DNA of 39,006 nt from Lachnospiraceae bacterium. Its GTDB lineage: Bacteria; Bacillota; Clostridia; Lachnospirales; Lachnospiraceae. The DNA lies in contig JAFTFD010000071.1 of NCBI GenBank assembly GCA_017449745.1, positions 1 through 39,006 of the forward strand, read 5' to 3'. Positions 5,807 to 34,240 of the stretch are shown here, one piece after another (within the stretch, counting starts at the first letter, position 1; the number at the start of each line of letters is the position of its first letter). The notes beneath the pieces are model-generated. The model was not told the origin of the DNA. It saw only the letters and a program-made list of their open reading frames with translations, and ran no database searches. Made by a program: the position numbers and the translations under genes.

Positions 5807-5820
5807 CTTAACCCCTGCCT

Positions 5821-8286: not shown

Positions 8287-8375
8287 TCGTATCCTCCATG
8301 GTGGAAACAAGATCCCCGGCATAGACCTGCACAGATGCTCCTGCTCCGCTGCTGTAAAACTCCCGCCTGCCGGAA

Positions 8376-9806
8376 TCAGTAGGCGTTCTTATTAATAAAT
8401 CCTTTGAAGATCGTCAGGAATAGGATCTTTATATCAAAGGACAGGTTCCAGTTTTCGATATAGAAAATATCATACTCGACCCTCTTTCGGATCGACGTGT
8501 CACCCCTGTAGCCGTTGATCTGGGCCCAGCCGGTGATACCCGGGCGCACCTGGTGCTTGACCATGTAGCGCGGGATCTCTTCCTTGAATTTTTCCACGAA
8601 CTGCGGTCTCTCGGGTCTTGGCCCGACAAGGCTCATCTTGCCCATCAGGACATTAAAGAACTGCGGCATCTCATCGATGCTGGTCCTGCGCAGAAGACTG
8701 CCGAATTTTGTCACCCTGCTGTCGTCCTTGGTCGTCCAGCCCTTCTGTTCCTGCGCTGCGCTCTGCACGGTCATCGTGCGGAACTTATACATGGTAAAGG
8801 GCTTGGAGTGGAGGCCGATCCTGGTCTGCTTGAAGATCACGGGTCCCTTACTGGTCAGCTTTGTGCCGATCGCAGCAAAGAGCATGACGGGGGAGAACAG
8901 GATGATCAGGAAAATGGCTCCGACGATATCCACGATTCTCTTGATGAGCGCATTCCAGGTGTTGGTCAGCGGCACGAACCGGATATTGATGACCGGCAGT
9001 CCCATCAGATCCTCTGTATAAGGCCTTGAAGGGAACAGGGAATTATAGTCCGGGATGAACTTGGTATGGACGCCCGATTTCTCGCACTGGTCAACGATGT
9101 TTTCCAGGTTATCGTAATCCTGCAGCGAGAGGGTAATCGCGATCTCGTCCAGTTCGTTCTCCGCAAGGAACTGCTGCAGGCTCTCCAGCGTAGAGAGCAC
9201 TTTTACGCCTTTATAGACCGTGCCGACCGGGACATGATCATCCAGAACGCCGTGCACGACATAGCCCCACTGCGGGTTTGCCGTGATCCTGTCAAGGTAT
9301 GCTTCGCCGGCTCTGGAATAGCCGACCAGGATCATGTGCTTTAAGTTGTTGCCTTTGCGCCTGATATAATACAGGAATTTGCGCAGGGCGTAGCGGTAGA
9401 GAATGGATGCGGCAATGTTGAACACATAGAACATTGCCAGGAACGAACGCGAGAAGTTCGTGATCTGGGTCAGACCGGGTCTTGTCAGGGCCAGGAAGAA
9501 GAACACCATGATGCCGGCAATACCGACCGTATTCGCCTTGAGGATCCCCGCGACCTCTGTCCTGACTCTGGTCGCTCTCTTGGATGTGTACAGGTTGTTG
9601 ATGGAATAGAGAACCAGATAAAAAGGCACGATTAAATAAAGGGCCGAAAAATACGTCTGCGCGGAAAGCGCAGTCTCGCCGGGCGTAGTATCCGCCAGAG
9701 GCGAGAGGAATTTTATGACCCAGGCCAGTGCGTAGCTGGCGGCAATAACGATGCCGTCCAGCAGAATATGGAGCCTGTTAAAAAATACCTGATTATCTTT
9801 GATCAT
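8376..9806 (-). CDS. Polyprenyl glycosylphosphotransferase (initiating sugar-1-phosphate transferase)
   Basis: The 476-aa membrane enzyme loads the first sugar-1-phosphate onto undecaprenyl phosphate and so starts the polysaccharide chain. Four N-terminal membrane segments are followed by a nucleotide-binding-like region (MILVGYSRAGEAYLD). A fifth hydrophobic helix (about residues 290-310) leads to the catalytic domain with KFRTMTVQ, RRTSIDEMPQFFNVL with the Asp-Glu pair, LVGPRPERP and RPGITGWAQING. It resembles the WbaP/CpsE group; the sugar (Glc, Gal or an amino sugar) cannot be told from sequence. The ATG at 9806 has GGAAG upstream and follows the previous gene by 21 bases. Confidence 0.94.
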   Translation of the reverse strand: MIKDNQVFFNRLHILLDGIVIAASYALAWVIKFLSPLADTTPGETALSAQTYFSALYLIVPFYLVLYSINNLYTSKRATRVRTEVAGILKANTVGIAGIMVFFFLALTRPGLTQITNFSRSFLAMFYVFNIAASILYRYALRKFLYYIRRKGNNLKHMILVGYSRAGEAYLDRITANPQWGYVVHGVLDDHVPVGTVYKGVKVLSTLESLQQFLAENELDEIAITLSLQDYDNLENIVDQCEKSGVHTKFIPDYNSLFPSRPYTEDLMGLPVINIRFVPLTNTWNALIKRIVDIVGAIFLIILFSPVMLFAAIGTKLTSKGPVIFKQTRIGLHSKPFTMYKFRTMTVQSAAQEQKGWTTKDDSRVTKFGSLLRRTSIDEMPQFFNVLMGKMSLVGPRPERPQFVEKFKEEIPRYMVKHQVRPGITGWAQINGYRGDTSIRKRVEYDIFYIENWNLSFDIKILFLTIFKGFINKNAY

Positions 9807-12231: not shown

Positions 12232-13965
12232 TTACAGCTGCACCAGCTCCCTGATCGCCGCTGTAAGCGCTTCATTCTTTTTCTCTGCATCCTGGAGACC
12301 GCTTCCGCGGACTCCCATGTAAAATTTGATCTTCGGCTCGGTGCCGGAAGGTCTTGCGCAGCACCATGCATCGTCGGAGAGCTCAAAATACAGGACGTTG
12401 GATTTCGGCAGTCCGGTCTCCCCCTCTGTTCCATCCGCAAGGTGCAGCACCTTCCCCGTCAGGTAATCCCTGACGGAGAGGACATCCCAGTCTGCAAGCT
12501 TTTTCGGAGGATCCCGGCGGATCGCATCCATCACAGCGCTGATCTTTTCGGCGCCGTCCATTCCTTTCATGGTAACGGAGTACTGCGACTCTCTGTAATA
12601 ACCGTATTCCTCGTAGATCTTCAGCATCTGGTCCCAGAGCGTCAGCCCGTGCTTTTTATAGAAAGCCGCCGCTTCACAGAGCATCATGACCGCTGCGGGA
12701 GCGTCCTTATCCCTGGCATGGGTACCCGGAAGGCATCCATAGCTCTCTTCCAGGCCGAAAACATAATTCCAGGAATTCTCCAGCTCGAATCGGTGGATCT
12801 GCTCTCCGATATATTTAAAGCCTGTGAGGCACTCCACATAGTGGAGTCCGTATTTTGCAGCCACCGCCGCCGCCAGATTCGTCGTCACGATCGTAGTGAC
12901 CAGTGCCGGTTTTTCCGGCATGATTCCCATCTTCGTGCGCTCCCGGAGAATGTACTCGCCGATCAGCATGCCGGACATATTGCCGGTAAAGCCGATATAC
13001 TCTCCTGTTGCTGCATCCTTTGCGTAGATGCCAAGACGATCTGCATCCGGATCCGTCGCGAGAACTATGTCAGCATCCTTTTCCCTGGCCAGCTTAAGCG
13101 CCAGCGTGAACGCCTTCGGATCCTCCGGATTCGGGTACTCCAACGTTGTGAAATTGCCGTCCGGCTCCTCCTGCTCAGGCACCACGAATACCTGCTTAAA
13201 GCCCAGTTCCTTTAGGACCCTTGTGACCGGGACAAGCCCTGCCCCGTGAAACGGCGTATACACGATCCTGATCTCATCCGCCATCTCGCGGATCACATCC
13301 GGATGAATGATCTGCTGTTTAAGGGCCTCCATATAGGCGTCATCGATCTTCTGTCCGAAATAGACCAGCAAGCCCTTCTCCTTGGCCAGCTCCTCGGAGA
13401 TCGTCTTCACATCCTGATACTCCGTCACCGCGTTTACCTCCGCGATGATCCCGGTATCATAAGGCGGGGTCACCTGGGCGCCATCCTCCCAGTAAACTTT
13501 GTAGCCATTGTACTCCGGCGGGTTATGGCTGGCGGTGATCTCTACGCCCGCCTGGCATCCGAAATACCGGAGCGCAAAGGACTCCTGCGGAACCGACCGC
13601 AGAGTGTCCGACAGATACGCCTTGATCCCGTTTGCGGCAAGGCACAGCGCCGTCTCCTTCGCAAACTCCGCAGACATTCTCCGGGAGTCGTACGAGATCG
13701 CAACACCTCTGGAGGCGTCGCCGTTTTTATTAATATAGTTCGCCAGTCCCTGCGTCGCCTTCCGGACCGTATAGATATTCATCCGGTTCGTTCCCGCGCC
13801 GATCACGCCGCGCAGGCCGCCCGTTCCAAACGCCAGGTCCTTATAGAATCTGTCTTCGATCTCCTTTGCGTCATTCCTGACCGCCAGAAGTTCCTGTTTC
13901 GTTTCGTCATCAAAATACGGATCCGTCAGCCAGTACTGCAGCTGCTCTTCCACTCTAGCCAGCAT
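12232..13965 (-). CDS. Phospho-sugar mutase (phosphoglucomutase/phosphomannomutase)
   Basis: The 577-aa cytoplasmic enzyme interconverts hexose-6-phosphate and hexose-1-phosphate. It supplies glucose-1-phosphate for RfbA and other nucleotide sugars. Seen are FGTGGLRGVIGAGTNRMN near the N-terminus, the phosphoserine loop TASHNPPEYNGYK, the metal-binding DPDADRLGI, the sugar-specificity loop GLEESYGCLPG and the phosphate-binding RPSGTEPKIKFY near the C-terminus. It is the long PgcA-type found in Firmicutes. The ATG at 13965 follows AAAGGAA closely; the TTG at 13983 lacks a site. Its place between glycosyltransferase genes links it to precursor supply for this polymer. Confidence 0.94.
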   Translation of the reverse strand: MLARVEEQLQYWLTDPYFDDETKQELLAVRNDAKEIEDRFYKDLAFGTGGLRGVIGAGTNRMNIYTVRKATQGLANYINKNGDASRGVAISYDSRRMSAEFAKETALCLAANGIKAYLSDTLRSVPQESFALRYFGCQAGVEITASHNPPEYNGYKVYWEDGAQVTPPYDTGIIAEVNAVTEYQDVKTISEELAKEKGLLVYFGQKIDDAYMEALKQQIIHPDVIREMADEIRIVYTPFHGAGLVPVTRVLKELGFKQVFVVPEQEEPDGNFTTLEYPNPEDPKAFTLALKLAREKDADIVLATDPDADRLGIYAKDAATGEYIGFTGNMSGMLIGEYILRERTKMGIMPEKPALVTTIVTTNLAAAVAAKYGLHYVECLTGFKYIGEQIHRFELENSWNYVFGLEESYGCLPGTHARDKDAPAAVMMLCEAAAFYKKHGLTLWDQMLKIYEEYGYYRESQYSVTMKGMDGAEKISAVMDAIRRDPPKKLADWDVLSVRDYLTGKVLHLADGTEGETGLPKSNVLYFELSDDAWCCARPSGTEPKIKFYMGVRGSGLQDAEKKNEALTAAIRELVQL

Positions 13966-13979
13966 AATATTCCTTTCAA

Positions 13980-15986
13980 TCAATCCTGCACCTTCAGGCT
14001 GTAATCGCTTCTGTCCAGCGTGAAGTTCGGGTTATAATACGGGTCGCCCGCATCGAGCACTTCCTTCCATTTTGCCCGGAACTGCGCCGATTCCTCGTTG
14101 TAGCGCTGCGCATTTTCTCCCTGCAGGTCATCTCCCCGGGAAGCGGATTCGTAGTGATACAGCTCCGCAAAAGGAGTAAACACGTTAAGATATCCCTTCT
14201 GCCTGCATTTAAGGCAAAGGTCCACATCATTCAGAGAGATGCGGAAAGTCTCATCAAGGCCTCCCACTTCTTCATAGATGCTCTTTTTCACCATCAGGCA
14301 CGCGCCTGTCACGGCGGAGACATCCTGTGTATAGCAGAGTCTTCCCATATATCCCAGGTTTTCCCTGCGCTGCCTGTAATGGGTGTGGCCGGCTGTCCTG
14401 TGTGCTCCAAGCCCCAGAACGATTCCCGCATGCTGGATCGTCTTATCCGGATAATAGAGCTTGCCGCCCACGCACGCGACGTCTTCTCTCTGCGCATACA
14501 TCAGCAGCTCTTCGATCCAGTTGATCGCAATGACTTCCGTGTCGTTGTTAAGGAGCAGGACATACTCTCCCTTTGCAGCCGCGACGCCGGCGTTGTTCAC
14601 GCGGGAGTAGTTGAACTTCTCCCCTTCCGCATAGGCATATTCTACAATATGCACCCTGTCCTTGTATGGGCCGGACTGCAATTCTTTATAGTATTTTAAT
14701 GTCTCCGGATCTGTGGAGCCGTTCTCCACGACGATGATCTCATAGTTCTCATACGTCGATTTTTCAAAGATCGAAGTAAGACAGCGCTTCAAGTCCTCCG
14801 CATGATCCTTATTGGCGATGACGATGGAGACAAGAGGCTCCCCCTGGATCTCATAGGTGATCTTGAAGATCGTCTCAAATGCCCGGGTCGAGGTGATCTT
14901 GAAGTTCTTGTATCCGTGCCTTCTTAAATGTGCCGCCACAGCGCCTTTTGCGGCGTCGATCGCATAGGTCTTCGCCCCGATATTATCCGCCGTGGAACCT
15001 GCATGGGATCTCCAGTAATACAGGAGCTTCGGCACATGGACGATCTTCTGTGCCTTATCTGTCAGGCGCAGGATCATATCGTGGTCCTGGCTCCCGTCAA
15101 ATTCGGAGCGATAGAGCTCTTCTCCCTCCAGCAGATGCCTGTCAAAGCAGGACAGGTGGCAGATATAATTGTTAGCCCGCAGATTGTCAATCGCATAATC
15201 CGGCTTGAAGTGGATCGTCACAAAATGGTTCAGATCCGCTTCCTTGAAGGTCGTCTCATCACAATAGAGATAATCTGCATTCTGTTCATTGATCGCTTTT
15301 ACATACTCATACAGAACAGAAGGGTGCAGATAATCATCGTGGTCAAACGGCGCGATAAACTCGCCGGTAGCGAGCTCCAGGCAGGCATTGGTATTGGCGG
15401 AAATACCGCCGTTTTTCTCAAGCTTCCGGTAGCGGATCCGGCGCGCGAGCTCCTCGCTTCTGGCACGGTATTCCTCCACTACCTCCCCTACATAGGCATG
15501 CGCATCATCCGATCCGTCCGCCAGGCAGAGCTCCCAGTTTCCATAGGTCTGCTGCAGGACAGAGTCCAGCATGTCCTTGAGGTACTCCCTGGGCGTGTTG
15601 TAAAGCGGCACCAGGATACTGAACAGGATCTGCCGCGGCAGGGCCGCTGCCTCAAGGCGCTGTCTCTCCCGCTCATCCTCTTTGGGAAAGCTGGCCGTAC
15701 CGTAGCCCTTTTCCGCCTGTTTTTCCCGGATCTTGTACTGGATCTTTTTGACGACACCTCGGGCATCTCCCTGGTTGCGGATGCGGTCCGCCTGCCTCTG
15801 GATAAAGTGATAGACGTCTCTCAGAGGCTTGGAAGCTTTCCAGAGCTTATTATTCTTGATCCTGTCCAGCTTGAAATTCAGGTCATCGACCTGGTCCTCC
15901 AGCTGTGCGACCCTGTCTGCCAGAAAGGCAGCCTTGGCGCGTTCCCGTTCATATAATTCCTGAAAGTCTTTTTCTTCTTTCGGCAT
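13980..15986 (-). CDS. Two-domain family 2 glycosyltransferase with N-terminal coiled coil
   Basis: In this 668-aa protein, residues 1-60 form a coiled coil (ADRVAQLEDQVDDLNFKLDR) followed by NNKLWKASKPLRD, often seen in large polysaccharide synthases. GT2 domain one (about 120-370) has FSILVPLYNTPREYL, NGGISANTNA, PFDHDDYLHP and QDHDMILRL. GT2 domain two (about 385-640) has VSIVIANKDHAEDL, VVENGSTDPETL, LLNNDTEVI, AVTGACLMVKK and LNDVDLCLK. Both carry DxD-like motifs, so the protein could add two different sugars or linkages, as a chain polymerase. The ATG at 15986 follows AGGAA. It lies 12 bases behind the next large transferase gene. Confidence 0.92.
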   Translation of the reverse strand: MPKEEKDFQELYERERAKAAFLADRVAQLEDQVDDLNFKLDRIKNNKLWKASKPLRDVYHFIQRQADRIRNQGDARGVVKKIQYKIREKQAEKGYGTASFPKEDERERQRLEAAALPRQILFSILVPLYNTPREYLKDMLDSVLQQTYGNWELCLADGSDDAHAYVGEVVEEYRARSEELARRIRYRKLEKNGGISANTNACLELATGEFIAPFDHDDYLHPSVLYEYVKAINEQNADYLYCDETTFKEADLNHFVTIHFKPDYAIDNLRANNYICHLSCFDRHLLEGEELYRSEFDGSQDHDMILRLTDKAQKIVHVPKLLYYWRSHAGSTADNIGAKTYAIDAAKGAVAAHLRRHGYKNFKITSTRAFETIFKITYEIQGEPLVSIVIANKDHAEDLKRCLTSIFEKSTYENYEIIVVENGSTDPETLKYYKELQSGPYKDRVHIVEYAYAEGEKFNYSRVNNAGVAAAKGEYVLLLNNDTEVIAINWIEELLMYAQREDVACVGGKLYYPDKTIQHAGIVLGLGAHRTAGHTHYRQRRENLGYMGRLCYTQDVSAVTGACLMVKKSIYEEVGGLDETFRISLNDVDLCLKCRQKGYLNVFTPFAELYHYESASRGDDLQGENAQRYNEESAQFRAKWKEVLDAGDPYYNPNFTLDRSDYSLKVQD

Positions 15987-15998
15987 AAATCGCAGTTC

Positions 15999-18083
15999 CT
16001 AACGTACTACAAGCTTGACATCTGACCAGTTGACAAGCCGCTGTCTAGAAGTTTTATCGATCGCAAGCATTCCGATCTGATATGTGCCTTTCTCCATAGC
16101 CGTATCTTTGATCACTGCTCCGAATCCGGTCAGCTTATCGTTGATCTGATCCGTAAGATTCTCGGCGATGTCCAGGCGCAGCATATTTTCGATCTCGATC
16201 TCCCAGACGGGATCCGAAGCGCCATCCGGGCGCAGCAGAAGCCTGCGGTCATAGATAGCGTTATCGGCATTGATCACAAAGGAATACCCCTTGATGTAAT
16301 ACCCTTTGTTCAGAGTACTCTCGCCGGATTCTCCGGTCAGAGGTCCTGTCAGCCACCTGTCCAGGCTGTTGGCGAATTCAACGCCAAGGCGCAGTACGGG
16401 ATCCGTCCACTTCTCAGGCGGTGCGCTCCTTCTGACGGGAGTCACATAGTGCGGATTGCGCAGCTCCACATCCTCGGCTGCGATCTCAAACTGCGTGACA
16501 GCCGGATCCTGTACGAGATAATCATGATAGAAGGGATCTCTTCGGAAGAGATCGGGGTGAGCGGACAGGAGTGCCTCCTGCTCTCTGGAGAGGCGCTGCG
16601 CCTTCACTTCATCCTTCCTGTCGTCTCCGCGGCTGAGGGACTCGTGATGGAACAGGTACATATTGTTGCGGACGACATTGTAGTAGCCTTTTTCGTAGAT
16701 CTTAAGACACAGATCGATATCGTTGAACGCAACTGCGTATTTCTCCTCGTCAAATCCGCCGACTTCCTGGAACAGGTTCGTGCGGACCATCAGGCAGGCG
16801 CCTGTCACGGCGATCACATTGCGGACACCTTTGTTAAATCCAAAATAATGGACTTCTTTGTTGTCGCAGTACTGCAGCTTATGGATCGGGCCGGCATGCA
16901 CGTTCACAACGCCGGCGTGCTGGATGATCTCTGATCCCGGATACAGCAGCTTCATGCCGACGGCTCCGACATAAGGGAGCTTTGCCTTCTCGGAGAGATA
17001 GGCCAGCCACATCGGGCGGAAGATCTCGATATCATCATTCAGAAACAGGAGCAGTTCTCCGTTCGCCTGGGAGGCGCCGATGTTGCACATCCTGGAGAAA
17101 TTGAACGGCATCGGCTCATAGATGTATTCCGCTCTTCCCGTCTCGTTGTGCTTTTCCAGCAAAGCCTCTACCTTGCGCCTGTTTTCAGGGCTGCTGCCGT
17201 TATCCACAACGATCAGCTCGTAAGGTGATTTCGTATTGTTCTCGATGGAGCGGATACAGGTGCTGAGGACCTGCGGGTTATCCTTGCTGGGGATAATAAT
17301 ACTGACAAGTCTTCCGGAAGCGGACTCCTCCGAATACCTTCCTGTCAGCGAGCTGCGGATCAGATCCGAATCCCAGGGCTCCGGCTTTTTCGAGGCATGG
17401 AAAAGGATCTCGGAAATATGGCCGATGGGATATCTGCCTCTGTGGCGTTTTGTAAAGCCGCCGGCCGCCTGTGCCAGCTTCATGACGAGCTTGCCGTAGA
17501 TCCAGGATTTCTGGGCGACGTCAAGATCAGTCTTTGCGGCCTTCTCCTCTTCCTCCCTGTCTGTCTCGATTCTTGATCTGGGCTCTATATCCTGCGCGCT
17601 TCTCTGTCCCGGATTGATCATAGCCAGTTCAGAAGAGCGGAAGGCAAAAACACTGCCAAAATAGAAGGTAGAGAGGAAGGTATCCGGAGACCAGTCCGGC
17701 TTAAACCAGAAATCCCTCAGCTCACCGTCCTCATCGATCCTGTCCTCATCTCCGTAGACCAGGCCGATCCTCGGATTATCCGCGAAGAAATCTCTGATCA
17801 GCATTTCCGCGTAATCCGTCAGCACTCCGTCGTCATCGTGCGCAATAATAATGTCCGGCATCGTCTTTCCGGAAAGGATATAATTGCGCAGGTGCGAGTA
17901 GCGGACAGCTTCCACGGTGAATGCGTCCGCCGCAGTGTGGTCCTTGGATTCAATACGCCTGCTCAGTTCGTATTTGTGCTCTCTGTACCAGAGTGCATAG
18001 GTATTGCTCTTTGCCGCCAGTTCTTTCCTGTAGGCCTCATCTCTTTTTTCTGTGAGATGCTTTTTTATCGTCTCTTTGATCAT
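15999..18083 (-). CDS. Two-domain family 2 glycosyltransferase with degenerate first domain and C-terminal beta domain
   Basis: In this 694-aa protein, the first region (about 70-240) keeps the acceptor half of a GT2 fold (IIIAHDDDGVLTDY, LVYGDEDRIDEDG, FKPDWSPDTFLS) but lacks the usual nucleotide-binding start. The second region (about 258-520) is a full GT2 domain with VSIIIPSKDNPQVL, VVDNGSSPENR, LFLNDDIEIF, AVTGACLMVR and AFNDIDLCLK. The last 130 residues look all-beta (YYIKGYSFVINADNAIYD ... QIGMLAIDKTSRQRLVNW) and may bind carbohydrate; this domain is not recognised. The ATG at 18083 has GAGG upstream. It follows the methyltransferase-kinase gene and belongs to the same operon. Confidence 0.9.
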   Translation of the reverse strand: MIKETIKKHLTEKRDEAYRKELAAKSNTYALWYREHKYELSRRIESKDHTAADAFTVEAVRYSHLRNYILSGKTMPDIIIAHDDDGVLTDYAEMLIRDFFADNPRIGLVYGDEDRIDEDGELRDFWFKPDWSPDTFLSTFYFGSVFAFRSSELAMINPGQRSAQDIEPRSRIETDREEEEKAAKTDLDVAQKSWIYGKLVMKLAQAAGGFTKRHRGRYPIGHISEILFHASKKPEPWDSDLIRSSLTGRYSEESASGRLVSIIIPSKDNPQVLSTCIRSIENNTKSPYELIVVDNGSSPENRRKVEALLEKHNETGRAEYIYEPMPFNFSRMCNIGASQANGELLLFLNDDIEIFRPMWLAYLSEKAKLPYVGAVGMKLLYPGSEIIQHAGVVNVHAGPIHKLQYCDNKEVHYFGFNKGVRNVIAVTGACLMVRTNLFQEVGGFDEEKYAVAFNDIDLCLKIYEKGYYNVVRNNMYLFHHESLSRGDDRKDEVKAQRLSREQEALLSAHPDLFRRDPFYHDYLVQDPAVTQFEIAAEDVELRNPHYVTPVRRSAPPEKWTDPVLRLGVEFANSLDRWLTGPLTGESGESTLNKGYYIKGYSFVINADNAIYDRRLLLRPDGASDPVWEIEIENMLRLDIAENLTDQINDKLTGFGAVIKDTAMEKGTYQIGMLAIDKTSRQRLVNWSDVKLVVR

Positions 18084-18175: not shown

Positions 18176-20398
18176 TTATAAACCGTCTGCCATTGTAGAA
18201 GGAATTCCCGCAAACTGCAGCGTAAAGGCGATGGAATCCGCCGGTGCGCCGTCATCGGTTCGGATACCGGCCTTTCTGCGGATCTTTTTCATGTCCCATT
18301 CAAACCAGGGATCGCTGCCGTCAAAGACCCAGCTCGCGCAGCCCGACTTTCTGCCGCAGCTCTTCACATACCGGACCATCATGTCCGTCAGATTCTTTCC
18401 TGCGCAGCGAACTTCCCGGATCCGGACGACGCCGGGGCAAAGCGAGGGATCGATCCTTAACTTGCGCACCGCCCGGGGTATGTCCAGACGGAAGGTGAGC
18501 ATTCCTTCTTCCTTGTACCAGTCATTAAGGAAGAAAGAGTCCTCTTCCTTATAACCGTCACCCATGTCGTAATAGATCTGCGGCGTCACCAGCGCGCGGT
18601 GGTTTCTCTCTTCTTCCTGCGCCCTGCGCTCCTCTTCTTCCGCCCTTGCCAGCTGTTCCCGGTAAGCGATCTCTTTCTCCTCGTCCGTCTGCAGAAGCGC
18701 CGGCTTGATGACCTCCGGTCCCATCTGTGCCCGGAGTCCTCCGAGCGAGAGGATCCCTCCCGTCACCTTTTTCTGGAACTGCGCCTCTTTTTCGGCGAGC
18801 TGCACCGCCTCATCCTTCGTGACGCCGATCAGGGAGAGCAGCTCCTCCTCCGGGATCAGCTCATACACTTTCCTGCGCCTTGACTGATCTTCCAGGAAAT
18901 AGCACAGTATGGAGCGGCACAGCAGTTCCCTGACCGGTACTGCCCCATCCACTGCCCATTCATAGTCGATGGCCGTCCACATATCCTTGCTGACGATGAT
19001 ATTGGCGAAGGTCATATCGTCGTCCGATGCCTTTGCGCCCTCTTCGCCCGCGCCGACACGCCTTGTGTACTCCCCGAGAAGCTCTGTGAAGCCTTCCCTG
19101 TCTCCGGCATCCAGCTTTTCGTCCAGAAGGCTCTCGAGCGTGCGCCCTTTGATATATTCGAATTCGACGCCTTTATGATCCGGCAGTACGCTGCAGGCTG
19201 CCACCTGAAGGTTCGGCTCCATATCGGCAAGAGAAAAGGCGTTTCCCAGTTCCCCGCTTCCATCGGCCTGCGTCAGATAGCGCTCGGATAACAGGCTGCA
19301 GGACTCCGCCATTTTCAATACATGCTGCAGCGCCTCTTCGGCGGCGGCATATTTGCGGACTTTCTTCTCTCCGTCCTCTTCTACGATCACCGTACTGATC
19401 CGGTACTGGGCGGCGCGATCCGTGCAGTACTTGCAGTAGATCACGGGAAGAGAGGGTCCGATCACGATCTCATAAGAATTGGAAAACAGCGGATAAAGGC
19501 CATCCTCCAGCAGTCCCTTATAAGCCTTGCGCTCATCGAACAGAAGAAGCCTGTCTCTGTCAAAATTCCGGATATTTTCGCTCAGCTGCGTATACTCCGG
19601 AAGCTTTTTGTCGGAATACAGCGTATCCATGAACTTGTAATCCGGGTATGGGTAATAGAAAGAATACTGCTCCTGTCCAAGTCCGCACTCTCCGAAGATC
19701 TTTTCCAGCGCCGGTCTCGAAAAGGTCCTTGCTGTGGGCTTCTGTGTATCGTAACTCTCGATATTTTCAAAATATTTGCCCGAGTGATCTTCCGCGCAGC
19801 CGGCGAAATATTTAAGTCCCAGGCGGTTCTCGATCGCTATGACGACGCGCCCCTCCAGAGCTCCGTTTTCCGGAGATCTGCGGACATGCTGCAGGATCCT
19901 GGTCAGCTCTGTGTGGAATGGCGCTTCCGTCGAAATATAACTGCCGGCATACTCAAAAACGCCGATCAGGAAAATATAGTCATAATCTCTGTCCAGCGAC
20001 GGCTCAACCTCTTCGAAATTGCCGACGTAGATCGTGATATTATCCCTGCTGCGGTTCCGATAGGCATTGATCTCCGAGCGCTTTCGGGAAAGATCCACGC
20101 AATCCACATGACCGCATTTGGCGGCCAATGTCCCCGTGATCGCCCCCGGACCGGCGCCGATCTCAAGCACCTTCTCCGTTCCGGTAAAAGGGATCCAGTC
20201 AACGATATTGCCCCTTGCGGTGGACAGGTGATACAGGATCTCCCATTTTTTCCTGTCACGGATGATCCCGTCGTACTGATCCGGACGATAATTGCGCACG
20301 ATCGACAGGATCTCATCCTCTGTCGGACCGTCACAATACAGATCCTGCCCTGAATAGTGGGTCAGATCCAGCGTTACATTCCCGATCTTCTCTGTCAT
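18176..20398 (-). CDS. Methyltransferase-kinase-coiled-coil protein, WbdD-like polysaccharide chain-terminator candidate
   Basis: The 740-aa protein begins with a class I SAM methyltransferase (about residues 50-260) with motif I VLEIGAGPG (77-85) and VDCVDLS. The next region (about 310-500) looks like an aminoglycoside/choline-kinase fold. It has basic residues at KKVRK, a hinge FEYIKGRTLESLL, a catalytic-loop pattern D461-xxxx-N466 and a metal-binding IDYEW with D478. A charged coiled coil follows (about 569-600) and then a beta-rich C-terminal domain (605-740). Methyltransferase, kinase, coiled coil is the order of WbdD, which caps and measures E. coli O8/O9a polymannan. The gene lies directly after wzt, whose product has a sugar-binding domain. 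Function is inferred; the kinase assignment rests on motifs only. Confidence 0.8.
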   Translation of the reverse strand: MTEKIGNVTLDLTHYSGQDLYCDGPTEDEILSIVRNYRPDQYDGIIRDRKKWEILYHLSTARGNIVDWIPFTGTEKVLEIGAGPGAITGTLAAKCGHVDCVDLSRKRSEINAYRNRSRDNITIYVGNFEEVEPSLDRDYDYIFLIGVFEYAGSYISTEAPFHTELTRILQHVRRSPENGALEGRVVIAIENRLGLKYFAGCAEDHSGKYFENIESYDTQKPTARTFSRPALEKIFGECGLGQEQYSFYYPYPDYKFMDTLYSDKKLPEYTQLSENIRNFDRDRLLLFDERKAYKGLLEDGLYPLFSNSYEIVIGPSLPVIYCKYCTDRAAQYRISTVIVEEDGEKKVRKYAAAEEALQHVLKMAESCSLLSERYLTQADGSGELGNAFSLADMEPNLQVAACSVLPDHKGVEFEYIKGRTLESLLDEKLDAGDREGFTELLGEYTRRVGAGEEGAKASDDDMTFANIIVSKDMWTAIDYEWAVDGAVPVRELLCRSILCYFLEDQSRRRKVYELIPEEELLSLIGVTKDEAVQLAEKEAQFQKKVTGGILSLGGLRAQMGPEVIKPALLQTDEEKEIAYREQLARAEEEERRAQEEERNHRALVTPQIYYDMGDGYKEEDSFFLNDWYKEEGMLTFRLDIPRAVRKLRIDPSLCPGVVRIREVRCAGKNLTDMMVRYVKSCGRKSGCASWVFDGSDPWFEWDMKKIRRKAGIRTDDGAPADSIAFTLQFAGIPSTMADGL

Positions 20399-20457
20399 CC
20401 TAATCCCTCTGTCTTTCTCGTGCGCTCAAGTACACTGTGCGCCCTGCCGCTTTTCTA

Positions 20458-21687
20458 TCACTCGACCGTGATCCTGGAGTTCATGTCATAATAACCGACC
20501 GAATTCTTATCCGAGACGACGGTCAGGCCCATCACGTCATAAAGGCGATGGTAAACAACAAAATCTTCCCTCTCATATCCGGTGACGCCGAGAGAGACAA
20601 GATACTCTCCTCCCTGCAGATCCACCTTCTGCGTAAACGTCACGGTCTTGGTCTCGCCTTTTTTTACACTGTCAAGGAAGGCCTTCTCAAACATGGTGTT
20701 GGTTCCGGAGATCTCGACACCGTATTTATTCTTTACCGTAAAGGCAAAGATCGGGGCCTGTACATCTTCCAGAAATTCAACGCTCATCCGGATCTTGCAC
20801 TCCGCTCCTTTCATGATCGCGGAGTTGACAAGTCCCTTATCGTCGATGATCTCGCTGGAGACGATCTTTGCCTTGCCGTTTCCGTACTCCAGCGCCTTCT
20901 CGTTTTCCTTGCGCTGAACGGTATCCGATCCTGCTTTTTCCGCATCGTACTGTCCTACCAGGACCTGCTTGTAGATATCGATCATCTCCTTGGCAGAGCC
21001 CTCTCCTAGCTTGACCCCCTGGTTCAGGCACACGACTCTGTCGCAGTATTTGCTGATACTGGAAAGGTCGTGGGATACGAACAATACTGTCTTGCCGGCC
21101 TTCTTAAACTCCTCAAATTTGCGGTAGCACTTGGCCTGGAAGAAAACGTCGCCAACGGACAGCGCTTCATCTACGATCAGGATCTCAGGATCTATGTTGA
21201 TCGCCAGGGCAAAGGCCAGCCGCATAAACATACCGCTGGAATAGGTCTTCACCGGTTGATGTACGTATTCTCCTATATCGGCAAATTCCAGGATCTTGGG
21301 CAGCCTCTCTTCGATCTCTTTGTCTGTGAATCCGATCATCGTGCCGTTGAGATAGATGTTATCGATCCCGTCATACTCCATATTAAATCCGGCGCCAAGC
21401 TCCAGCAGCGCCGAGATCCTGCCGTTGACGATCACTTCTCCGGAGGTCGGTGTCAGCACTCCTGTTATGATCTTGAGAATCGTGGATTTTCCGGAACCGT
21501 TTGTGCCTATGATCCCGACAGTCTCTCCTCTGTGGACGGTCAGACTGACATCGTTGAGCGCTTTGTACTCTGTATAATGAGGCTTCCGGGAGAGACTGAG
21601 CGCGTCGATCACCCGGTCCCGGTTCCTGGCATACAGTTTGTAGGATTTATTCAGATGGTTGACCTGAATGGCTATTTCTTTATCCAT
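20458..21687 (-). CDS. wzt: Wzt-type polysaccharide ABC transporter ATPase with C-terminal sugar-binding domain
   Basis: In this 409-aa protein, residues 1-245 form an ABC ATPase of the polysaccharide export type: Walker A GTNGSGKST, signature TYSSGMFMRLAFAL, Walker B EILIVDEAL and the switch His in FVSHD. Residues about 260-409 form an additional domain ending in VGYYDMNSRITVE. This matches the Wzt C-terminal domain, a beta-sandwich that in E. coli O9a binds the capped non-reducing end of the exported polymer. The ATG at 21687 has no strong ribosome binding site and lies 26 bases after wzm, so coupling is likely. With Wzm it would flip the lipid-linked polymer across the membrane. Confidence 0.94.
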   Translation of the reverse strand: MDKEIAIQVNHLNKSYKLYARNRDRVIDALSLSRKPHYTEYKALNDVSLTVHRGETVGIIGTNGSGKSTILKIITGVLTPTSGEVIVNGRISALLELGAGFNMEYDGIDNIYLNGTMIGFTDKEIEERLPKILEFADIGEYVHQPVKTYSSGMFMRLAFALAINIDPEILIVDEALSVGDVFFQAKCYRKFEEFKKAGKTVLFVSHDLSSISKYCDRVVCLNQGVKLGEGSAKEMIDIYKQVLVGQYDAEKAGSDTVQRKENEKALEYGNGKAKIVSSEIIDDKGLVNSAIMKGAECKIRMSVEFLEDVQAPIFAFTVKNKYGVEISGTNTMFEKAFLDSVKKGETKTVTFTQKVDLQGGEYLVSLGVTGYEREDFVVYHRLYDVMGLTVVSDKNSVGYYDMNSRITVE

Positions 21688-21713: not shown

Positions 21714-22703
21714 TTACATGACATCTGCAAACTGAGGTTTGAGTTTCTTAAAGATCAGGGCCGATACGACAAAGATCAGTCCGGTTGCGATCCAAAAATA
21801 TGTCGAGGAATAGAAATGCTGCCAGAACCACTGCTCTCCGTAAATGGAGCTGCGGTATCCTTCCACGATGTAGGCTACGGGATTCAGCTTGATAAAGAAC
21901 CGGATCCTGTCCCATTTCGGATCATATATGTTCCAGAGGATCGGCGTTGCCCACATGCCTACCTGCATGATGATCGCTATGATCTGCTGCAGGTCGCGGA
22001 AAAAGACCACAATCGCACTGGTCGCATAACATAGTCCCAGGATCAGGATATACTCGCAGACCGTATAATACAGTACCTGGATCCAGTAGATAGAAGGCCG
22101 GTACCCATAAAACATGGAGATCAGCAGCAGCACGCCTGTAAATCCGAGATGCGTAAAGACCGCCGCATTGACTTTGATCATCGGCAGCATACTGACCTTG
22201 AATACGACCTTTTTGACCAGATAGTTATATTCCAGCAGAGAAGTCGTACCGCTTGAAAGCGCATCCGTAAAGAAGAACCATGGCACCAGACCCGCTGTCA
22301 GAAACAGGACATAAGGCACTTCGATCCCCTCTGTGACAGCCTGTCTTCCGGAGCCGAAAATTCTGTCAAAAACAACATAATACATCGCAACCGTCACGAT
22401 CGGCGGGACCAACGCCCAGATAACTCCCAGATAGGAACCGGCATAACGCTTGCGAAAATCATTTTTGGAAAGTCTCCAGATCAGCCTCCTGTTCTGATAC
22501 AGCTCGGAAGGGAGGAGCTTGACCTTGTCATACAGTCCTGTGACCAGCACACTGATAAACCCGACCAGAAGGCAGCCGCAGATCTTCTTAAGTCTTGCAG
22601 TATCCGGATCCTCCAGCGGGTTATCGTGCAGCAGCAGAACCGTGATCAGGGCAGCTGCCACACACCATACCAGTGTTAAAGTAATCGTTTTCTTTTTATC
22701 CAT
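21714..22703 (-). CDS. wzm: Wzm-type polysaccharide ABC transporter permease
   Basis: The 329-aa membrane protein has an ABC-2 permease core with the family segment LIWRLSKNDFRKRYAGSYLG followed by about six hydrophobic helices and a typical C-terminal KLNPVAYIVEGYR. It forms the channel through which Wzt drives lipid-linked polysaccharide to the outer face of the membrane. Two extra hydrophobic helices (about residues 7-25 and 42-60) precede the usual start, making the protein about 60-70 residues longer than common Wzm/RgpC proteins. The ATG at 22703 lies inside the end of rfbC (8-base overlap), so translation is probably coupled; the ribosome binding site is weak. Confidence 0.93.
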   Translation of the reverse strand: MDKKKTITLTLVWCVAAALITVLLLHDNPLEDPDTARLKKICGCLLVGFISVLVTGLYDKVKLLPSELYQNRRLIWRLSKNDFRKRYAGSYLGVIWALVPPIVTVAMYYVVFDRIFGSGRQAVTEGIEVPYVLFLTAGLVPWFFFTDALSSGTTSLLEYNYLVKKVVFKVSMLPMIKVNAAVFTHLGFTGVLLLISMFYGYRPSIYWIQVLYYTVCEYILILGLCYATSAIVVFFRDLQQIIAIIMQVGMWATPILWNIYDPKWDRIRFFIKLNPVAYIVEGYRSSIYGEQWFWQHFYSSTYFWIATGLIFVVSALIFKKLKPQFADVM

Positions 22704-23268
22704 TGCAGCGTTCTTTTCTGTAGGCCGTGATGCCTTCCCATTTCTGGTCCTTATCGGACAGGGTGAGCTCTACACCTTCCTGAAGAGGCCACTCGATCCC
22801 GATCTCCGGATCATCCCATTTAAGACCAGCCTCATCGTTGGGATGCCAGAAATCCGTCACTTTGTAGCAGAACTCTGCCTCGTCGGAGAGAACAAGAAAT
22901 CCGTGTGCGAAATTCTCGGGAATAAAGAACTGCTTTTTATTCTCGGCGGTGAGCACGATCCCGAACCATTTTCCAAAAGTCTCGGAGCCCGGACGCAGAT
23001 CGACGGCAACGTCAAATACCTCGCCTTTTACGACTCTGACGAGTTTTGCCTGCGGATAATTGATCTGAAAATGAAGTCCCCTTAAAACTCCTCTTCTGGA
23101 AGATGACTGATTGTCCTGTACGAAGGTACAGTCGATCCCTGCCTCGGCGAAATCCCTGGCCTGATAGGTCTCCATAAAGTATCCTCTGTCATCGCCATGC
23201 ACTGCCGGCATTACGACTTTAAGACCGCGGATCCCGCCGCAATCGTGTTCTACTGTGATCTGTCCCAT
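22696..23268 (-). CDS. rfbC: dTDP-4-dehydrorhamnose 3,5-epimerase
   Basis: The 190-aa cupin enzyme is the third step of dTDP-L-rhamnose synthesis. It has DDRGYFMETYQARDF, FVQDNQSSS, VLRGLHFQ with the catalytic His, VVKGEVFDVAVDLRPGS, FFIPENFAHGF and CYKVTDFWHP with the catalytic Tyr. The length is normal. The ATG at 23268 has AAAGGA 7 bases upstream. It follows rfbA by 67 bases and overlaps wzm by 8 bases. The fourth enzyme, RfbD (dTDP-4-dehydrorhamnose reductase), is not in the window. Confidence 0.97.
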   Translation of the reverse strand: MGQITVEHDCGGIRGLKVVMPAVHGDDRGYFMETYQARDFAEAGIDCTFVQDNQSSSRRGVLRGLHFQINYPQAKLVRVVKGEVFDVAVDLRPGSETFGKWFGIVLTAENKKQFFIPENFAHGFLVLSDEAEFCYKVTDFWHPNDEAGLKWDDPEIGIEWPLQEGVELTLSDKDQKWEGITAYRKERCNG

Positions 23269-23335: not shown

Positions 23336-24214
23336 TCAGAGCCCCTCTGCGATATCGATCAGGTATTTTCCGTAATTTGTCTTGAGCAGCGGCTGTGCGA
23401 GCGCGATCAGCTGCTCTCTGTCTATAAAGCCTCTGCGGTAAGCGATCTCTTCAATGCAGGAGATATAGAGTCCCTGTCTTTTCTGGAAGGATGCGACAAA
23501 ATCCGCAGCGTCGAGCAGATCGTCATGAGTTCCTGTATCCAGCCAGGCGAAACCGCGTCCCAGTGTCTCTACATGGAGCTTGCCCATTTCCAGGTAAGCG
23601 TTGTTGATGCTGGTGATCTCGATCTCTCCTCTTGCGGAGGGTTTGACATTGGCTGCGATCTCTACTACATCGTTGTCATAGAAATACAGGCCCGGAACCG
23701 CATAGTTGCTCTTGGGGTTCTCCGGTTTCTCTTCGATCGAGATCGCCTTTCCGTTCTCATCGAATTCCACGACGCCGTAAGCTCTCGGATCTCTGACGTA
23801 ATAGCCAAAGATCGTAGCGCCGCCGCATTCATGGATCCTCTCGTAAGTTGCGCGCAGCACCCTTGAGAAGCTCTGTCCGTAGAAAATATTATCGCCGAGC
23901 ACGAGCGCCGCAGCGTCGTCGCCGATAAAGTCCGCTCCGATAATAAATGCGTCCGCAAGGCCTCTGGGCTGCTCCTGTACCCTGTATTCAAAGTGCAGGC
24001 CCAGCTGCTCTCCTGTCCCGAAGAGCTCTTCGAAGACCGGCAGGTCCCTGGGTGTCGAGATGATCAGGATATCCCGGATTCCCGCCAGCATCAGAGTGGA
24101 AAGAGGATAATAGATCATCGGCTTGTCGTAGACAGGCATGATCTGCTTGGAGATCGCCTTGGTCAGCGGATACAGTCTGGTGCCGGAACCTCCGGCCAGG
24201 ATAATACCTTTCAT
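23336..24214 (-). CDS. rfbA: Glucose-1-phosphate thymidylyltransferase
   Basis: The 292-aa enzyme makes dTDP-glucose from glucose-1-phosphate and dTTP, the first step of dTDP-rhamnose synthesis. The nucleotide-binding [61 protein letters not shown] and the [13 protein letters not shown] loop are all intact. The ATG at 24214 with AAGGAG 6 bases upstream gives the usual MKGIILAGG start; a longer in-frame start extends into the hairpin spacer and is rejected. A 16-bp inverted repeat lies between it and rfbB. Confidence 0.97.
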
Positions 24215-24240
24215 ATTTCTCCTTTTCTTGTGAGACATGG

Positions 24241-24285: not shown

Positions 24286-25374
24286 TCAGCTGAGCTTTGC
24301 AGAATACATATCCTCATAATATTTCTCATAGCTGCCGCTGGTAATGTGCTCCATCCAGTCCATGTGGCGGAAATACCAGTCGATCGTCTTGCGGATGCCC
24401 TCGCGGAACATCGTATCCGGCTCCCATCCCAGATCAGCGCGGATCTTATCCGGCGCGATCGCGTATCTTCTGTCGTGTCCCTTGCGGTCCTCGACATAAG
24501 TGATCAGATCATAGGTCACATGCTCTTTCCTGGGATCATCATCGGAGAGCTCCTCCCTGAGGACATCGATGATGGTCCTGACGATCTCGATATTCTGTTT
24601 TTCATTGTGGCCGCCGACGTTGTAGGTCTCAAAGAGCTTGCCCTTCTCCTGGACCATGTCGATCGCCTTGCAGTGATCCTCGACATAGAGCCAGTCGCGG
24701 ACATTCTTGCCGTCCCCGTAGACGGGCAGCTTTTTGCCTGCCAGCGCATTGTTGATCATGAGCGGGATCAGCTTCTCCGGGAACTGGTAAGGGCCGTAGT
24801 TGTTCGAGCAGTTCGTGATGTTGGCCGGGAAATGATAGGTATCCATATAGGCCTTGACCAGCATATCCGAGCTCGCCTTGGAAGCGGAATAAGGGCTGTG
24901 AGGGGCATAGGGTGTCGTCTCATAGAAATAGCCGCCGTCCTCCGGAAGGGATCCGTACACCTCATCGGTAGAAACATGCAGGAACCTCTTGCCCTCCTTG
25001 AATGTGCCGTCCGGGTTCTCCCACGCCTCCTTGGCGCAGTTGATCATGTTGGCAGTTCCGAGGACATTGGTCTTGACGAACAGCTCCGGCTCTACGATGG
25101 ATCTGTCCACATGGCTCTCCGCCGCGAAATGGATCACTCTGTCGATATCATTCTCGGCAAAGATCTTCCGGATCGCCTCCTTATCGCAGATATCCGCCTT
25201 CACGAAAGTATAGTTGGGGAGCTCCTCCACATCCTTGAGGTTCTCGAGATTCCCCGCATATGTCAGCTTGTCCACATTGATGATCCGAATATCCTCTCCG
25301 TATTTGCCGAACATATAATGAATAAAGTTGGAACCGATAAATCCGGCTCCGCCGGTCACCAGAAATGTCTTCAT
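24286..25374 (-). CDS. rfbB: dTDP-glucose 4,6-dehydratase
   Basis: The 362-aa NAD-dependent short-chain dehydrogenase-type enzyme is the second step of dTDP-rhamnose synthesis. It has the Rossmann motif [22 protein letters not shown], the catalytic [10 protein letters not shown] (Thr-Asp-Glu) and the YSASKASSD Tyr-x-x-x-Lys pair, plus [15 protein letters not shown] and [15 protein letters not shown]. The ATG at 25374 has AAAGGA about 10 bases upstream. It is the first gene of the polysaccharide operon, behind a promoter at about 25520 and a leader of about 135 bases with two strong hairpins. Confidence 0.97.
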
Positions 25375-30745: not shown

Positions 30746-30750
30746 TGCTT

Positions 30751-30756
30751 CTCCTT
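30751..30756 (-). promoter_or_regulatory. Ribosome binding site deciding a TTG start for the MATE gene
   Basis: AAGGAG on the minus strand lies 5 bases before TTG (30743-30745) and downstream of the alternative GTG at 30763. The TTG is therefore the better start. Confidence 0.6.
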
Positions 30757-30814
30757 CAGTCACAGCACATTGTGCACAGGCTCCATGGCCTTTATTCCAT
30801 AGAGCCGTCCTTCG

Positions 30815-33286: not shown

Positions 33287-33344
33287 AGTATTCTCCATGC
33301 CGAAGCGTCAGCGAAGGCATAATGCCGGCCTTCTTTGGCGCGCT

Positions 33345-34208: not shown

Positions 34209-34240
34209 CCGTTCTGCTCCTTTCTTATAAGCTGTCCGGT

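What the first reader, a model, noticed from the sequence alone, without database searches (positions are those of the whole stretch)
18176..21687. WbdD-like methyltransferase-kinase-coiled-coil capping protein next to a Wzt with sugar-binding domain, in a Gram-positive
The 740-aa protein has a SAM methyltransferase (VLEIGAGPG), a kinase-like region (D461-xxxx-N466, D478 in IDYEW), then a coiled coil. This is the order of WbdD, which caps E. coli O8/O9a polymannan and sets its length. The adjacent Wzt has the extra C-terminal domain that in O9a recognises the capped end. Together with Wzm, a glycosylphosphotransferase and an LCP ligase, this suggests a terminator-controlled, cap-recognised export route for a wall polysaccharide in Clostridia. 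What is seen is the domain order and motifs; the capping role is inferred. The beta-rich C-terminal domain (605-740) is not in WbdD as far as I recall and could be a second glycan-binding part.
Basis: partly seen in the sequence, partly recalled or inferred. Interest (0 to 1): 0.85.

Follow-up and report, generated by a model that had tools for sequence, protein, structure and literature searches.

The report
Sugar-chain capping enzyme with matched exporter
A gut-type Gram-positive bacterium (inferred Lachnospiraceae) carries a two-part enzyme that looks as if it caps a rhamnose-containing wall polysaccharide with methyl-phosphate, beside an exporter with the kind of domain that in E. coli reads such caps; the pair recurs in about half of the sampled genomes of its family.

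Summary
The 740-aa protein (18176-20398, minus strand) and the neighbouring Wzt are as described, and the main idea holds, but the closest relative is a different one. Residues 1-316 are a SAM methyltransferase. Residues 317-566 look like a divergent kinase that no Pfam model caught; K349, D461, N466 and D478 are identical in 76 of 76 aligned proteins. Wzt carries Wzt_C (E 4.6e-40) and is 37% identical over its length to E. coli O9 Wzt. WbdD, read from E. coli HS, matches the family only around the SAM motif. A Pseudomonas protein laid out like the Klebsiella O7 terminator ORF6 matches over methyltransferase, kinase and C-terminal domain (E 7e-47). ORF6 is reported to put methyl-phosphate on a terminal rhamnose. 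Of 148 genomes with the strong Wzt_C type, 138 have the enzyme at E<=1e-10, against 8 of 151 without. The coiled coil called in this protein is not conserved; a conserved coil-like stretch sits on the separate two-module GT2 protein. Best reading: a terminator-coupled ABC export pathway for a rhamnose-containing, probably wall-anchored glycan. Gram-positive S-layer systems are partial precedents. Structure prediction could not be run, and no activity was tested.

The parts
18176..20398 (-). methyltransferase-kinase (MTK), 740 aa, predicted chain terminator
   Evidence: ORF; methyltransferase families; homologous over methyltransferase, kinase and C-terminal domain to a Pseudomonas protein with ORF6^O7 layout
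19451..20398 (-). methyltransferase domain, residues 1-316
   Evidence: Y21, Y56, G81, G83, Y150 correspond to ORF6^O7 Y28, Y66, G91, G93, Y158 (with PMC11231755)
18701..19450 (-). kinase-like domain, residues 317-566; K349, D461, N466, D478
   Evidence: identical in 76 of 76; weak profile matches to protein kinases; matches kinase parts of 7 relatives outside the family at E 6e-23
   Evidence: segment 561-606 is 46 residues against a median of 22 in the others
18179..18586 (-). C-terminal domain, residues 605-740, possibly CBM-like
   Evidence: profile match to P. asturiensis 567-695 (E 3.5e-4 in a set of 21 proteins; also within); ORF6^O7 is modelled with an Ig-like CBM at this place (PMC11231755)
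20458..21687 (-). Wzt, ATPase of the exporter with C-terminal domain
   Evidence: ABC_tran and Wzt_C; 37% identity over residues 5-407 to E. coli HS O9 Wzt
20482..20892 (-). Wzt_C domain (PF14524)
   Evidence: E 4.6e-40 on the protein; genome place
21714..22703 (-). Wzm, membrane part of the exporter
   Evidence: PF01061 E 3.5e-13
13980..15986 (-). GTb, two GT2 modules with an N-terminal coil-like stretch; likely polymerase partner of the terminator
   Evidence: 38.6% identity over a 549-column alignment to the C-terminal part of the P. asturiensis fused protein; joined to the kinase part in L064, L073, L077, L081
15807..15986 (-). coil-like stretch at the start of GTb, about residues 1-60
   Evidence: heptad z above 2 in 83 of 100 GTb sequences against 14% for a control stretch (score of my own)
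15999..18083 (-). GTa, GT2 protein
22696..23268 (-). RmlC-like 3,5-epimerase (dTDP-rhamnose)
   Evidence: as phmmer query it picks the 178-aa Citrobacter gene annotated rfbC; no family scan of the window ORF
23336..24238 (-). RmlA-like nucleotidyltransferase (dTDP-rhamnose)
   Evidence: as phmmer query it picks the Citrobacter gene annotated rfbA; no family scan of the window ORF
24286..25374 (-). RmlB-like dTDP-glucose 4,6-dehydratase
   Evidence: GDP_Man_Dehyd and Epimerase families; as phmmer query it picks the Citrobacter gene annotated dTDP-glucose 4,6-dehydratase
12232..13983 (-). phosphohexomutase
   Evidence: PGM_PMM I-III
8376..9806 (-). initiating undecaprenyl-phosphate glucose phosphotransferase (WcaJ type)
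   Evidence: TIGR03023 507.6 bits, cut-off 410.75
6853..8322 (-). LCP-family ligase, probable wall attachment
   Evidence: PF03816 E 2.9e-33; TIGR00350 above cut-off

Best explanation
MTK is the chain terminator of an ABC-exported, rhamnose-containing wall polysaccharide. In the cytoplasm GTb (two GT2 modules), with GTa and other transferases, extends an undecaprenyl-PP-linked chain. The MTK kinase domain phosphorylates the non-reducing terminal sugar, perhaps O-3 of a rhamnose; the methyltransferase domain then methylates that phosphate, and growth stops. The C-terminal domain of Wzt binds the capped end and lets Wzm/Wzt export only finished chains, and the LCP protein attaches them to the wall. 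Shown here: domain homology, conserved catalytic residues, gene order, co-occurrence, fusion of terminator and polymerase parts in relatives, and covariation of methyltransferase and Wzt_C. Inferred: the reactions, the sugar and position, cap reading and attachment to the wall.
For: (1) Family profile against a P. asturiensis protein with ORF6^O7 layout: 628 columns over methyltransferase, kinase and C-terminal domain, probability 100%, E 6.8e-47 for this one comparison. Its residue numbers fit those published for ORF6^O7 (Y28, Y66, G91, G93, E112, Y158 exactly; D443 for D441, PMC11231755). ORF6^O7 was reported there to add phosphate, then methyl, at O-3 of a terminal rhamnose; D441A gave no product. 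(2) K349, D461, N466, D478 identical in 76 of 76; N466 in 37 of 37 and the other three in at least 90% of a more diverse set. (3) Of 148 genomes with strong Wzt_C, 138 have MTK at E<=1e-10, against 8 of 151 without it; 87 of 110 MTK places have Wzt_C within 400 bp upstream on the same strand and 12 more within 5 kb. (4) Wzt is 37% identical to E. coli HS O9 Wzt including the C-terminal domain; [quoted passage not shown] (5) Methyltransferase, kinase and GTb-like parts are one polypeptide in P. asturiensis and L067; kinase plus GTb in L064, L073, L077, L081. (6) With rml distances held fixed, methyltransferase distances follow Wzt_C (0.48, permutation maximum 0.24) more than Wzt's own ATPase part (0.28, maximum 0.26). 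(7) rmlBACD-wzm-wzt-MTK in the same order on a Citrobacter plasmid, with a transposase gene between rml and wzm.
Against: No fold was obtained, and PDB profile matches of the kinase part to kinases are weak and not top-ranked (E 0.012 behind ThreeFoil at 0.0011; 0.15 behind two designed proteins for the broader set). The sequence of ORF6^O7 itself was not available; the link runs through published residue numbers, layout and P. asturiensis. 11 of 110 MTK places have no strong Wzt_C near, though at least one (G277) is on a contig of 4115 bases. Catalytic residues are not universal in outside relatives: Citrobacter has Glu for the DFG-like Asp and its kinase part hardly matches the family profile (E 0.04); L218 has Asn for D461 and for D478. 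An LCP gene was seen in 4 of 60 and 5 of 80 fetched stretches, most of which are too short to reach its place. No paper seen reports methyl-phosphate on a Lachnospiraceae wall glycan.
Confidence: 0.7

Rival explanations
1. The protein modifies internal or side-chain sugars rather than the chain end: a decorating kinase-methyltransferase, with Wzt_C reading some other feature of the glycan.
For: No assay places the modification at the end. In split forms the methyltransferase is a separate protein of about 300-340 aa, which could act apart from the polymerase.
Against: Direct adjacency to Wzt_C genes, covariation with Wzt_C and homology to a protein reported to modify the chain end (PMC11231755) point to the chain end.
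Confidence: 0.13
2. Only one of the two domains is active: a pure O-methyl cap, as reported for WsaE and E. coli O8, with the kinase part as scaffold, or a phosphate cap without methyl.
For: WsaE is reported to cap a Gram-positive rhamnan with 2-O-methyl (PMC2943079 passages). The C. difficile Ox247 S-layer glycan is reported to end in a (cyclo)phosphorylated rhamnose (PMC6254364 passages). Two outside relatives lack kinase Asp residues (Citrobacter; L218).
Against: All four kinase residues are identical in 76 of 76 proteins; of 60 picked loci all but one (L088) had a kinase match in or within 76 bases of the methyltransferase gene at the threshold, and L088 has one by profile.
Confidence: 0.11
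3. True WbdD orthologue with a coiled-coil ruler.
For: Same domain order and same D-x4-N...D pattern (D351, N356, D369 in WbdD, PMC3482155); the weak kinase alignment lands on that loop; next to a Wzt related to O9 Wzt.
Against: Only the region of the SAM motif aligns; kinase probability 0.7%; H132/H133 face E149/Y150; no conserved coil.
Confidence: 0.03
4. The pathway makes an S-layer or secreted glycan rather than an LCP-anchored wall polymer; the terminator logic is the same but the fate differs. (A variant of the best explanation; its odds overlap with it.)
For: The Gram-positive examples of a capped glycan plus Wzm/Wzt found in the papers seen are S-layer glycans (PMC2943079, PMC6254364).
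Against: An LCP gene is in the same block (6853-8322) and in L034, L042, L043, L085.
Confidence: 0.15

Closest known systems
Klebsiella pneumoniae O7 terminator ORF6^O7-N (Kelly et al. 2024, PMC11231755)
   Same: N-terminal methyltransferase, then a kinase domain that was unannotated there, then a CBM-like domain; rhamnose glycan; matching SAM-site residues and catalytic Asp.
   Different: In ORF6^O7 the coil and two GT2 modules are in the same polypeptide; here they are a separate gene (GTb). Gram-positive setting with an LCP gene instead of LPS. The parts of the paper read name relatives in alpha- and gammaproteobacteria, cyanobacteria and Methanoculleus; a search of its main text for Gram-positive, Clostridi and Firmicutes found 0.
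WbdD, E. coli O9a / Klebsiella O3 (PMC3482155)
   Same: Works alike: methyltransferase plus kinase beside a Wzt with C-terminal domain; same catalytic-loop pattern.
   Different: Only the region of the SAM motif aligns; kinase not recognisably related; H132/H133 not kept; no conserved long coil.
WsaE, Geobacillus stearothermophilus S-layer glycan (PMC2943079, passages)
   Same: Gram-positive rhamnan, methyltransferase joined to two rhamnosyltransferases, Wzm/Wzt export with cap binding predicted by the authors.
   Different: 2-O-methyl cap, three domains described and no kinase among them; S-layer protein as acceptor. Its sequence was not compared here.
C. difficile Ox247 S-layer glycan locus (PMC6254364, passages)
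   Same: Clostridial rhamnose-containing glycan, two-component ABC exporter, phosphate on the terminal rhamnose, proposed by its authors to work like O9a.
   Different: No gene assigned to capping in the passages seen; cap proposed as 2,3-cyclophosphate; S-layer acceptor. Its sequence was not compared here.
RgpCD-type rhamnan export of streptococci and lactococci (PMC4931226, PMC10821137, passages)
   Same: Gram-positive rhamnose wall polysaccharide exported by a two-part ABC transporter.
   Different: In the passages seen no methyl-phosphate cap is described; lactococcal rhamnan is 'possibly terminated' by a GlcNAc.

Membership tests
ORF6^O7-N type methyltransferase-kinase terminators | SAM-site residues Y28, Y66, G91, G93, E112, Y158 | tested here: met
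   Window Y21, Y56, G81, G83, D102 (D in 58, E in 18 of 76), Y150 (through P. asturiensis); E112 is conservatively replaced by D in the window.
ORF6^O7-N type methyltransferase-kinase terminators | Unannotated kinase domain with catalytic Asp D441 | tested here: met
   0 of 38 hit a Pfam kinase; homologous to the P. asturiensis kinase part; D461 identical in 76 of 76.
ORF6^O7-N type methyltransferase-kinase terminators | Ig-like CBM after the kinase | tested here: inconclusive
   C-terminal domain homologous to P. asturiensis 567-695 (E 3.5e-4 in 21 proteins; part); the fold could not be predicted.
ORF6^O7-N type methyltransferase-kinase terminators | Coiled coil and two GT2 modules in the same polypeptide | tested here: not met
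   Separate gene GTb in the window; joined in P. asturiensis and L067, and with the kinase part in L064, L073, L077, L081. The paper says some orthologues end after the coil, so this is a variable feature of the family.
ORF6^O7-N type methyltransferase-kinase terminators | Adds methyl-phosphate to a terminal rhamnose | not testable with these tools
   Needs an assay.
WbdD (E. coli O9a) | Methyltransferase then kinase; D351, N356, D369 | tested here: met
   Order, and pattern D461, N466, D478; the alignment with WbdD lands on this loop but is not significant.
WbdD (E. coli O9a) | Kinase of the same sequence family | tested here: not met
   hhalign probability 0.7%, 23 columns.
WbdD (E. coli O9a) | Phosphate-methyltransfer residues H132, H133 (and R203, Y16) | tested here: not met
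   H132/H133 face E149/Y150, identical in 76 of 76 (the alignment has probability 65%); R203 and Y16 not compared.
WbdD (E. coli O9a) | Long C-terminal coiled coil acting as ruler | tested here: not met
   Segment 561-606 is short and not conserved.
Wzt with cap-binding C-terminal domain | PF14524 domain after the ATPase; similarity to O9 Wzt | tested here: met
   E 4.6e-40; 37% identity over residues 5-407 to E. coli HS O9 Wzt.
Wzt with cap-binding C-terminal domain | Binds the capped end | not testable with these tools
   Needs binding or export assays.
WsaE-type methyl terminators | Methyltransferase fused to two rhamnosyltransferases, no kinase | tested here: not met
   Kinase-like domain present, GT2 modules on another gene; WsaE sequence not compared.

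The most novel reading that the evidence does not exclude
About half of the sampled genera of a major gut family (inferred Lachnospiraceae) make a wall polysaccharide that is sized and exported by O-antigen logic: a kinase-methyltransferase puts one methyl-phosphate on the terminal sugar, the exporter's Wzt_C reads it, and the length ruler sits on the polymerase rather than on the terminator. This would be a one-per-chain cap of a peptidoglycan-anchored Gram-positive glycan that repeat-unit NMR could easily miss.
Probability: 0.5. Interest if true: 0.72.

Novelty: new variant of a known kind. Interest (0 to 1): 0.58.

Why it matters
Chain-end capping coupled to export is well worked out for some Gram-negative O antigens and only partly for Gram-positive S-layer glycans. 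If right, the same logic governs a wall glycan in many gut commensals, gives a direct explanation of chain-length control there, and predicts a specific chemical mark (methyl-phosphate on the last sugar) and a binding partner (Wzt_C) that can both be tested. It also outlines a kinase-like domain that no Pfam model caught.

Tried and rejected
Structure prediction of A2 (window protein plus 75 relatives from the search for related loci) was asked for 29 times and always answered 'machine is busy', so no fold search was run.

The raw tallies of 163 of 299 and 253 of 398 at E<=1e-3 were not used as counts of the family: many weak rows cover only about positions 65-130 in frames of about 300 aa, which I take (by recall) for RsmA/KsgA sharing the SAM motif. 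For counts I used E<=1e-49 or 1e-10 and say so.

WbdD orthology was tested with the E. coli HS protein and dropped. The coiled coil as a ruler in this protein was dropped; MTK 540-612 could be heptad-scored in only 15 of 76 sequences because windows with proline were skipped, and about a quarter of these passed z 2. The heptad score is a simple one of my own. A first mirror-tree run gave nan partial values and was repeated with length filters and without GTb (88 of 140 loci had all genes, 79 after removing near-copies). Pfam scanning of 38 kinase domains gave only scattered non-kinase hits; PHROGs only methyltransferases. A methyltransferase profile against the PDB did not show WbdD among the best 60 of 134. 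blastn of the Citrobacter gene in E. coli genomes: no match. The link to the R. gnavus glucorhamnan was not tested; the paper I wanted is not held.

Mended on checking: I had first written that K349 falls on the beta3 lysine of STK33; it falls one residue beside it. The Citrobacter rfbC is 178 aa. Confidence lowered from 0.72 to 0.70 for this and for the relatives that lack kinase residues.


Full report
What is there. The window holds a block of genes on the minus strand: rmlB-, rmlA- and rmlC-like genes, wzm, wzt, the 740-aa protein (MTK), GTa, GTb, a phosphohexomutase, two more GT2 proteins, a WcaJ-type glycosylphosphotransferase and an LCP protein. The window's rmlA, rmlB and rmlC products pick the genes so annotated on a Citrobacter plasmid. 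MTK starts 59 bases after wzt ends, wzt starts 26 bases after wzm ends, and wzm and rmlC overlap. A full RmlD lies elsewhere in the genome (contig C355), so dTDP-rhamnose can probably be made.

Domains of MTK. Methyltransferase families match within residues 77-170. Pfam, NCBIfam and PHROGs gave only methyltransferase matches, and none of 38 kinase-domain members hits a Pfam kinase. In the PDB, a profile of 41 proteins (window included) finds methyltransferases and then JAK1 kinase at E 1.5e-4 over profile positions 332-448. With the kinase part alone the best hit is ThreeFoil (E 0.0011), which I take for chance; the next is STK33 at E 0.012, aligned so that D461 and N466 fall on the catalytic-loop Asp and Asn and K349 one residue beside the AIK lysine. 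A broader kinase profile does worse (best kinase E 0.15, behind two designed proteins). R328, T336, K349, D461, N466, D478, E480, W481 and R495 are identical in 76 of 76 proteins; in a more diverse set N466 is identical in 37 of 37, and K349, D461 and D478 in at least 90%.

Which known family. E. coli HS (O9) supplied a 708-aa protein between wbdA and wzt. It is annotated only as a methyltransferase, but its length and its D351, N356 and D369 are those of WbdD in PMC3482155 (Results and Discussion read). The window family aligns with it over 103 columns around the SAM motif only (probability 65%, E 6e-5). There WbdD H132/H133, found essential for methylating the phosphate in that paper, face E149/Y150. 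The kinase profile against WbdD gives probability 0.7%, though its best piece is the catalytic loop. By contrast, a 1457-aa protein on a Pseudomonas asturiensis plasmid aligns over 628 columns through methyltransferase, kinase and C-terminal domain (probability 100%, E 6.8e-47). Profiles and Pfam place its methyltransferase, kinase part, C-terminal-like domain and two GT2 modules in that order, with a coil-like stretch before the GT2 modules seen by eye. This is the layout described for the Klebsiella O7 terminator ORF6 (PMC11231755; abstract, part 1 of the terminator section and part 1 of the Discussion read). Its residues fall on the published ORF6 numbers: Y28, Y66, G91, G93, E112, Y158 exactly, and D443 for the catalytic D441. 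In that paper ORF6 phosphorylated and partly methylated a repeat-unit mimic at O-3 of the terminal rhamnose, and D441A gave no product. Kinase profiles of 38 window-family members and of 7 outside relatives match at probability 99.5%, E 6e-23 (the 7 were found through the family's own methyltransferase or kinase matches). Not every outside relative keeps the kinase residues: Citrobacter has Glu for the DFG-like Asp and hardly matches the kinase profile (E 0.04), and L218 has Asn at both Asp positions.

The C-terminal domain and the coil. The coil is another matter: segment 561-606 has 46 residues in the window and a median of 22 in the 75 others. GTb, the separate two-GT2 protein, is 38.6% identical over 549 columns to the C-terminal part of the P. 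asturiensis protein, is joined to the kinase part in L064, L073, L077 and L081, and GTb residues 206-666 match the end of L067, which also has methyltransferase and kinase parts. Of 12 large proteins compared, GTb was not found in 3 (L072, L080, L088) and only about its second module in 3 (L086, L087, L089). GTb begins with a coil-like stretch that scores z above 2 in 83 of 100 sequences, against 14% for a control stretch. So the ruler, if there is one, is more likely on the polymerase, and fusion in relatives argues that terminator and polymerase work as one complex.

Pairing with Wzt_C. In 299 genomes of the family (298 genera), 148 have a strong Wzt_C (E 3.8e-35 or better) and 146 have MTK at E<=1e-10; 138 have both, 8 only MTK, 10 only Wzt_C, 143 neither (Fisher p 1e-61, which ignores kinship). 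At E<=1e-3 all 148 have a match, but that threshold admits SAM-motif background. Of 110 MTK places at E<=1e-49 (106 genomes), 87 have Wzt_C within 400 bases upstream on the same strand, 12 more within 5 kb, 11 none; of 150 strong Wzt_C places 99 have such an MTK place near. Of 60 loci I picked, 58 hold a Wzt_C gene, 54 within 400 bases. Of 80 loci in named genomes 73 have it adjacent, 3 within 4 kb, 4 none, three of these four at a contig start. Over 79 non-redundant loci, with rml distances held fixed, methyltransferase distances correlate 0.55 with the kinase, 0.48 with Wzt_C, 0.35 with Wzm and 0.28 with the Wzt ATPase; Wzt_C with its own ATPase 0.46. Permutation maxima of 300 were 0.17-0.26; the 0.28 barely exceeds its own (0.26).

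Outside the family. In a phylum sample of 398 genomes the listed rows show 11 genomes outside the family with matches well beyond the SAM motif (counted by eye; the list is cut), two of them (G634, G656) the cytidylyltransferase-fused relatives named below, and one more genome (G320) with the C-terminal part only. Of twelve stretches fetched, five hold a methyltransferase within 1.6 kb of a Wzt whose C-terminal domain is confirmed: by Pfam in L215, L216, L217, L222, and by a family profile in L212. L213, L214, L218, L219, L220, L221 and L223 do not show this. A Citrobacter braakii plasmid typed conjugative has rmlBACD, a transposase gene, wzm, wzt with Wzt_C, and an MTK homologue in that order.

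What is known and new. Cap-coupled export is established for some O antigens. In Gram-positives, WsaE of Geobacillus is reported to end a rhamnan with 2-O-methyl, with Wzt predicted to bind it (PMC2943079, passages), and a C. difficile S-layer glycan is reported to end in a phosphorylated rhamnose, compared by its authors with O9a (PMC6254364, passages). So the logic is not new to Gram-positives. What I did not find in print is an MT-kinase terminator paired with Wzt_C in a Gram-positive wall-glycan cluster with an LCP gene: searches (for example Lachnospiraceae with Wzt: 2 papers, neither on this by title). The library lacks most subscription papers. I rate it a new variant of a known kind.

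Limits. No fold, no assay, no glycan structure. Gene calls in loci are mechanical ORFs. Genomes are related, so p-values overstate. The family boundary to weak matches is a choice of threshold.

Noticed in passing
L220:8927-11200 (+), L221:8433-10694 (-), L223:8299-10677 (-): Related proteins of 753-792 aa whose match runs from the later methyltransferase part through the kinase part, with weak or no methyltransferase families and a C-terminal cytidylyltransferase-like domain (PF01467). Possibly another glycan-modifying kinase architecture.
   Followed up: partly
L203:1207-12496 (Citrobacter braakii plasmid pF217-3): A plasmid typed conjugative carries rmlBACD, wzm, wzt with Wzt_C and an MTK homologue in the same order as the window, with an IS630 transposase gene between rml and wzm. 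Its kinase part has Glu where the family has the DFG-like Asp (EREW).
   Followed up: partly
L080:4723-9393, L073:5907-9089, L088:9371-15043, L214:9328-13458: Very large fusions: kinase part with GT2 and GT4-type modules (L080, L073), methyltransferase and weak kinase match with transferase modules (L088), methyltransferase with WbsX and RgpF-like domains (L214).
   Followed up: partly
window 5177-5941 (-): A RelA/SpoT-like synthetase (PF04607) lies directly beside the glycan genes.
   Followed up: no
window 28731-35455 (-): A methionine block: B12 methionine synthase activation domain, MetH-like protein, MTHFR (TIGR00676), with a MatE transporter between, and a 404-aa ORF at 34241-35455 with no NCBIfam match (not scanned with Pfam). 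It could bear on SAM supply; not examined.
   Followed up: no
window 25566-28709 (-): A 1047-aa protein with Big_2 domains, a choline-binding-like repeat at the cut-off and a GH25 lysozyme domain next to the rml genes; a possible wall hydrolase linked to the glycan.
   Followed up: no
own genome, contig C355:13685-14521: rmlD is on another contig, not in the rml block of the window.
   Followed up: yes
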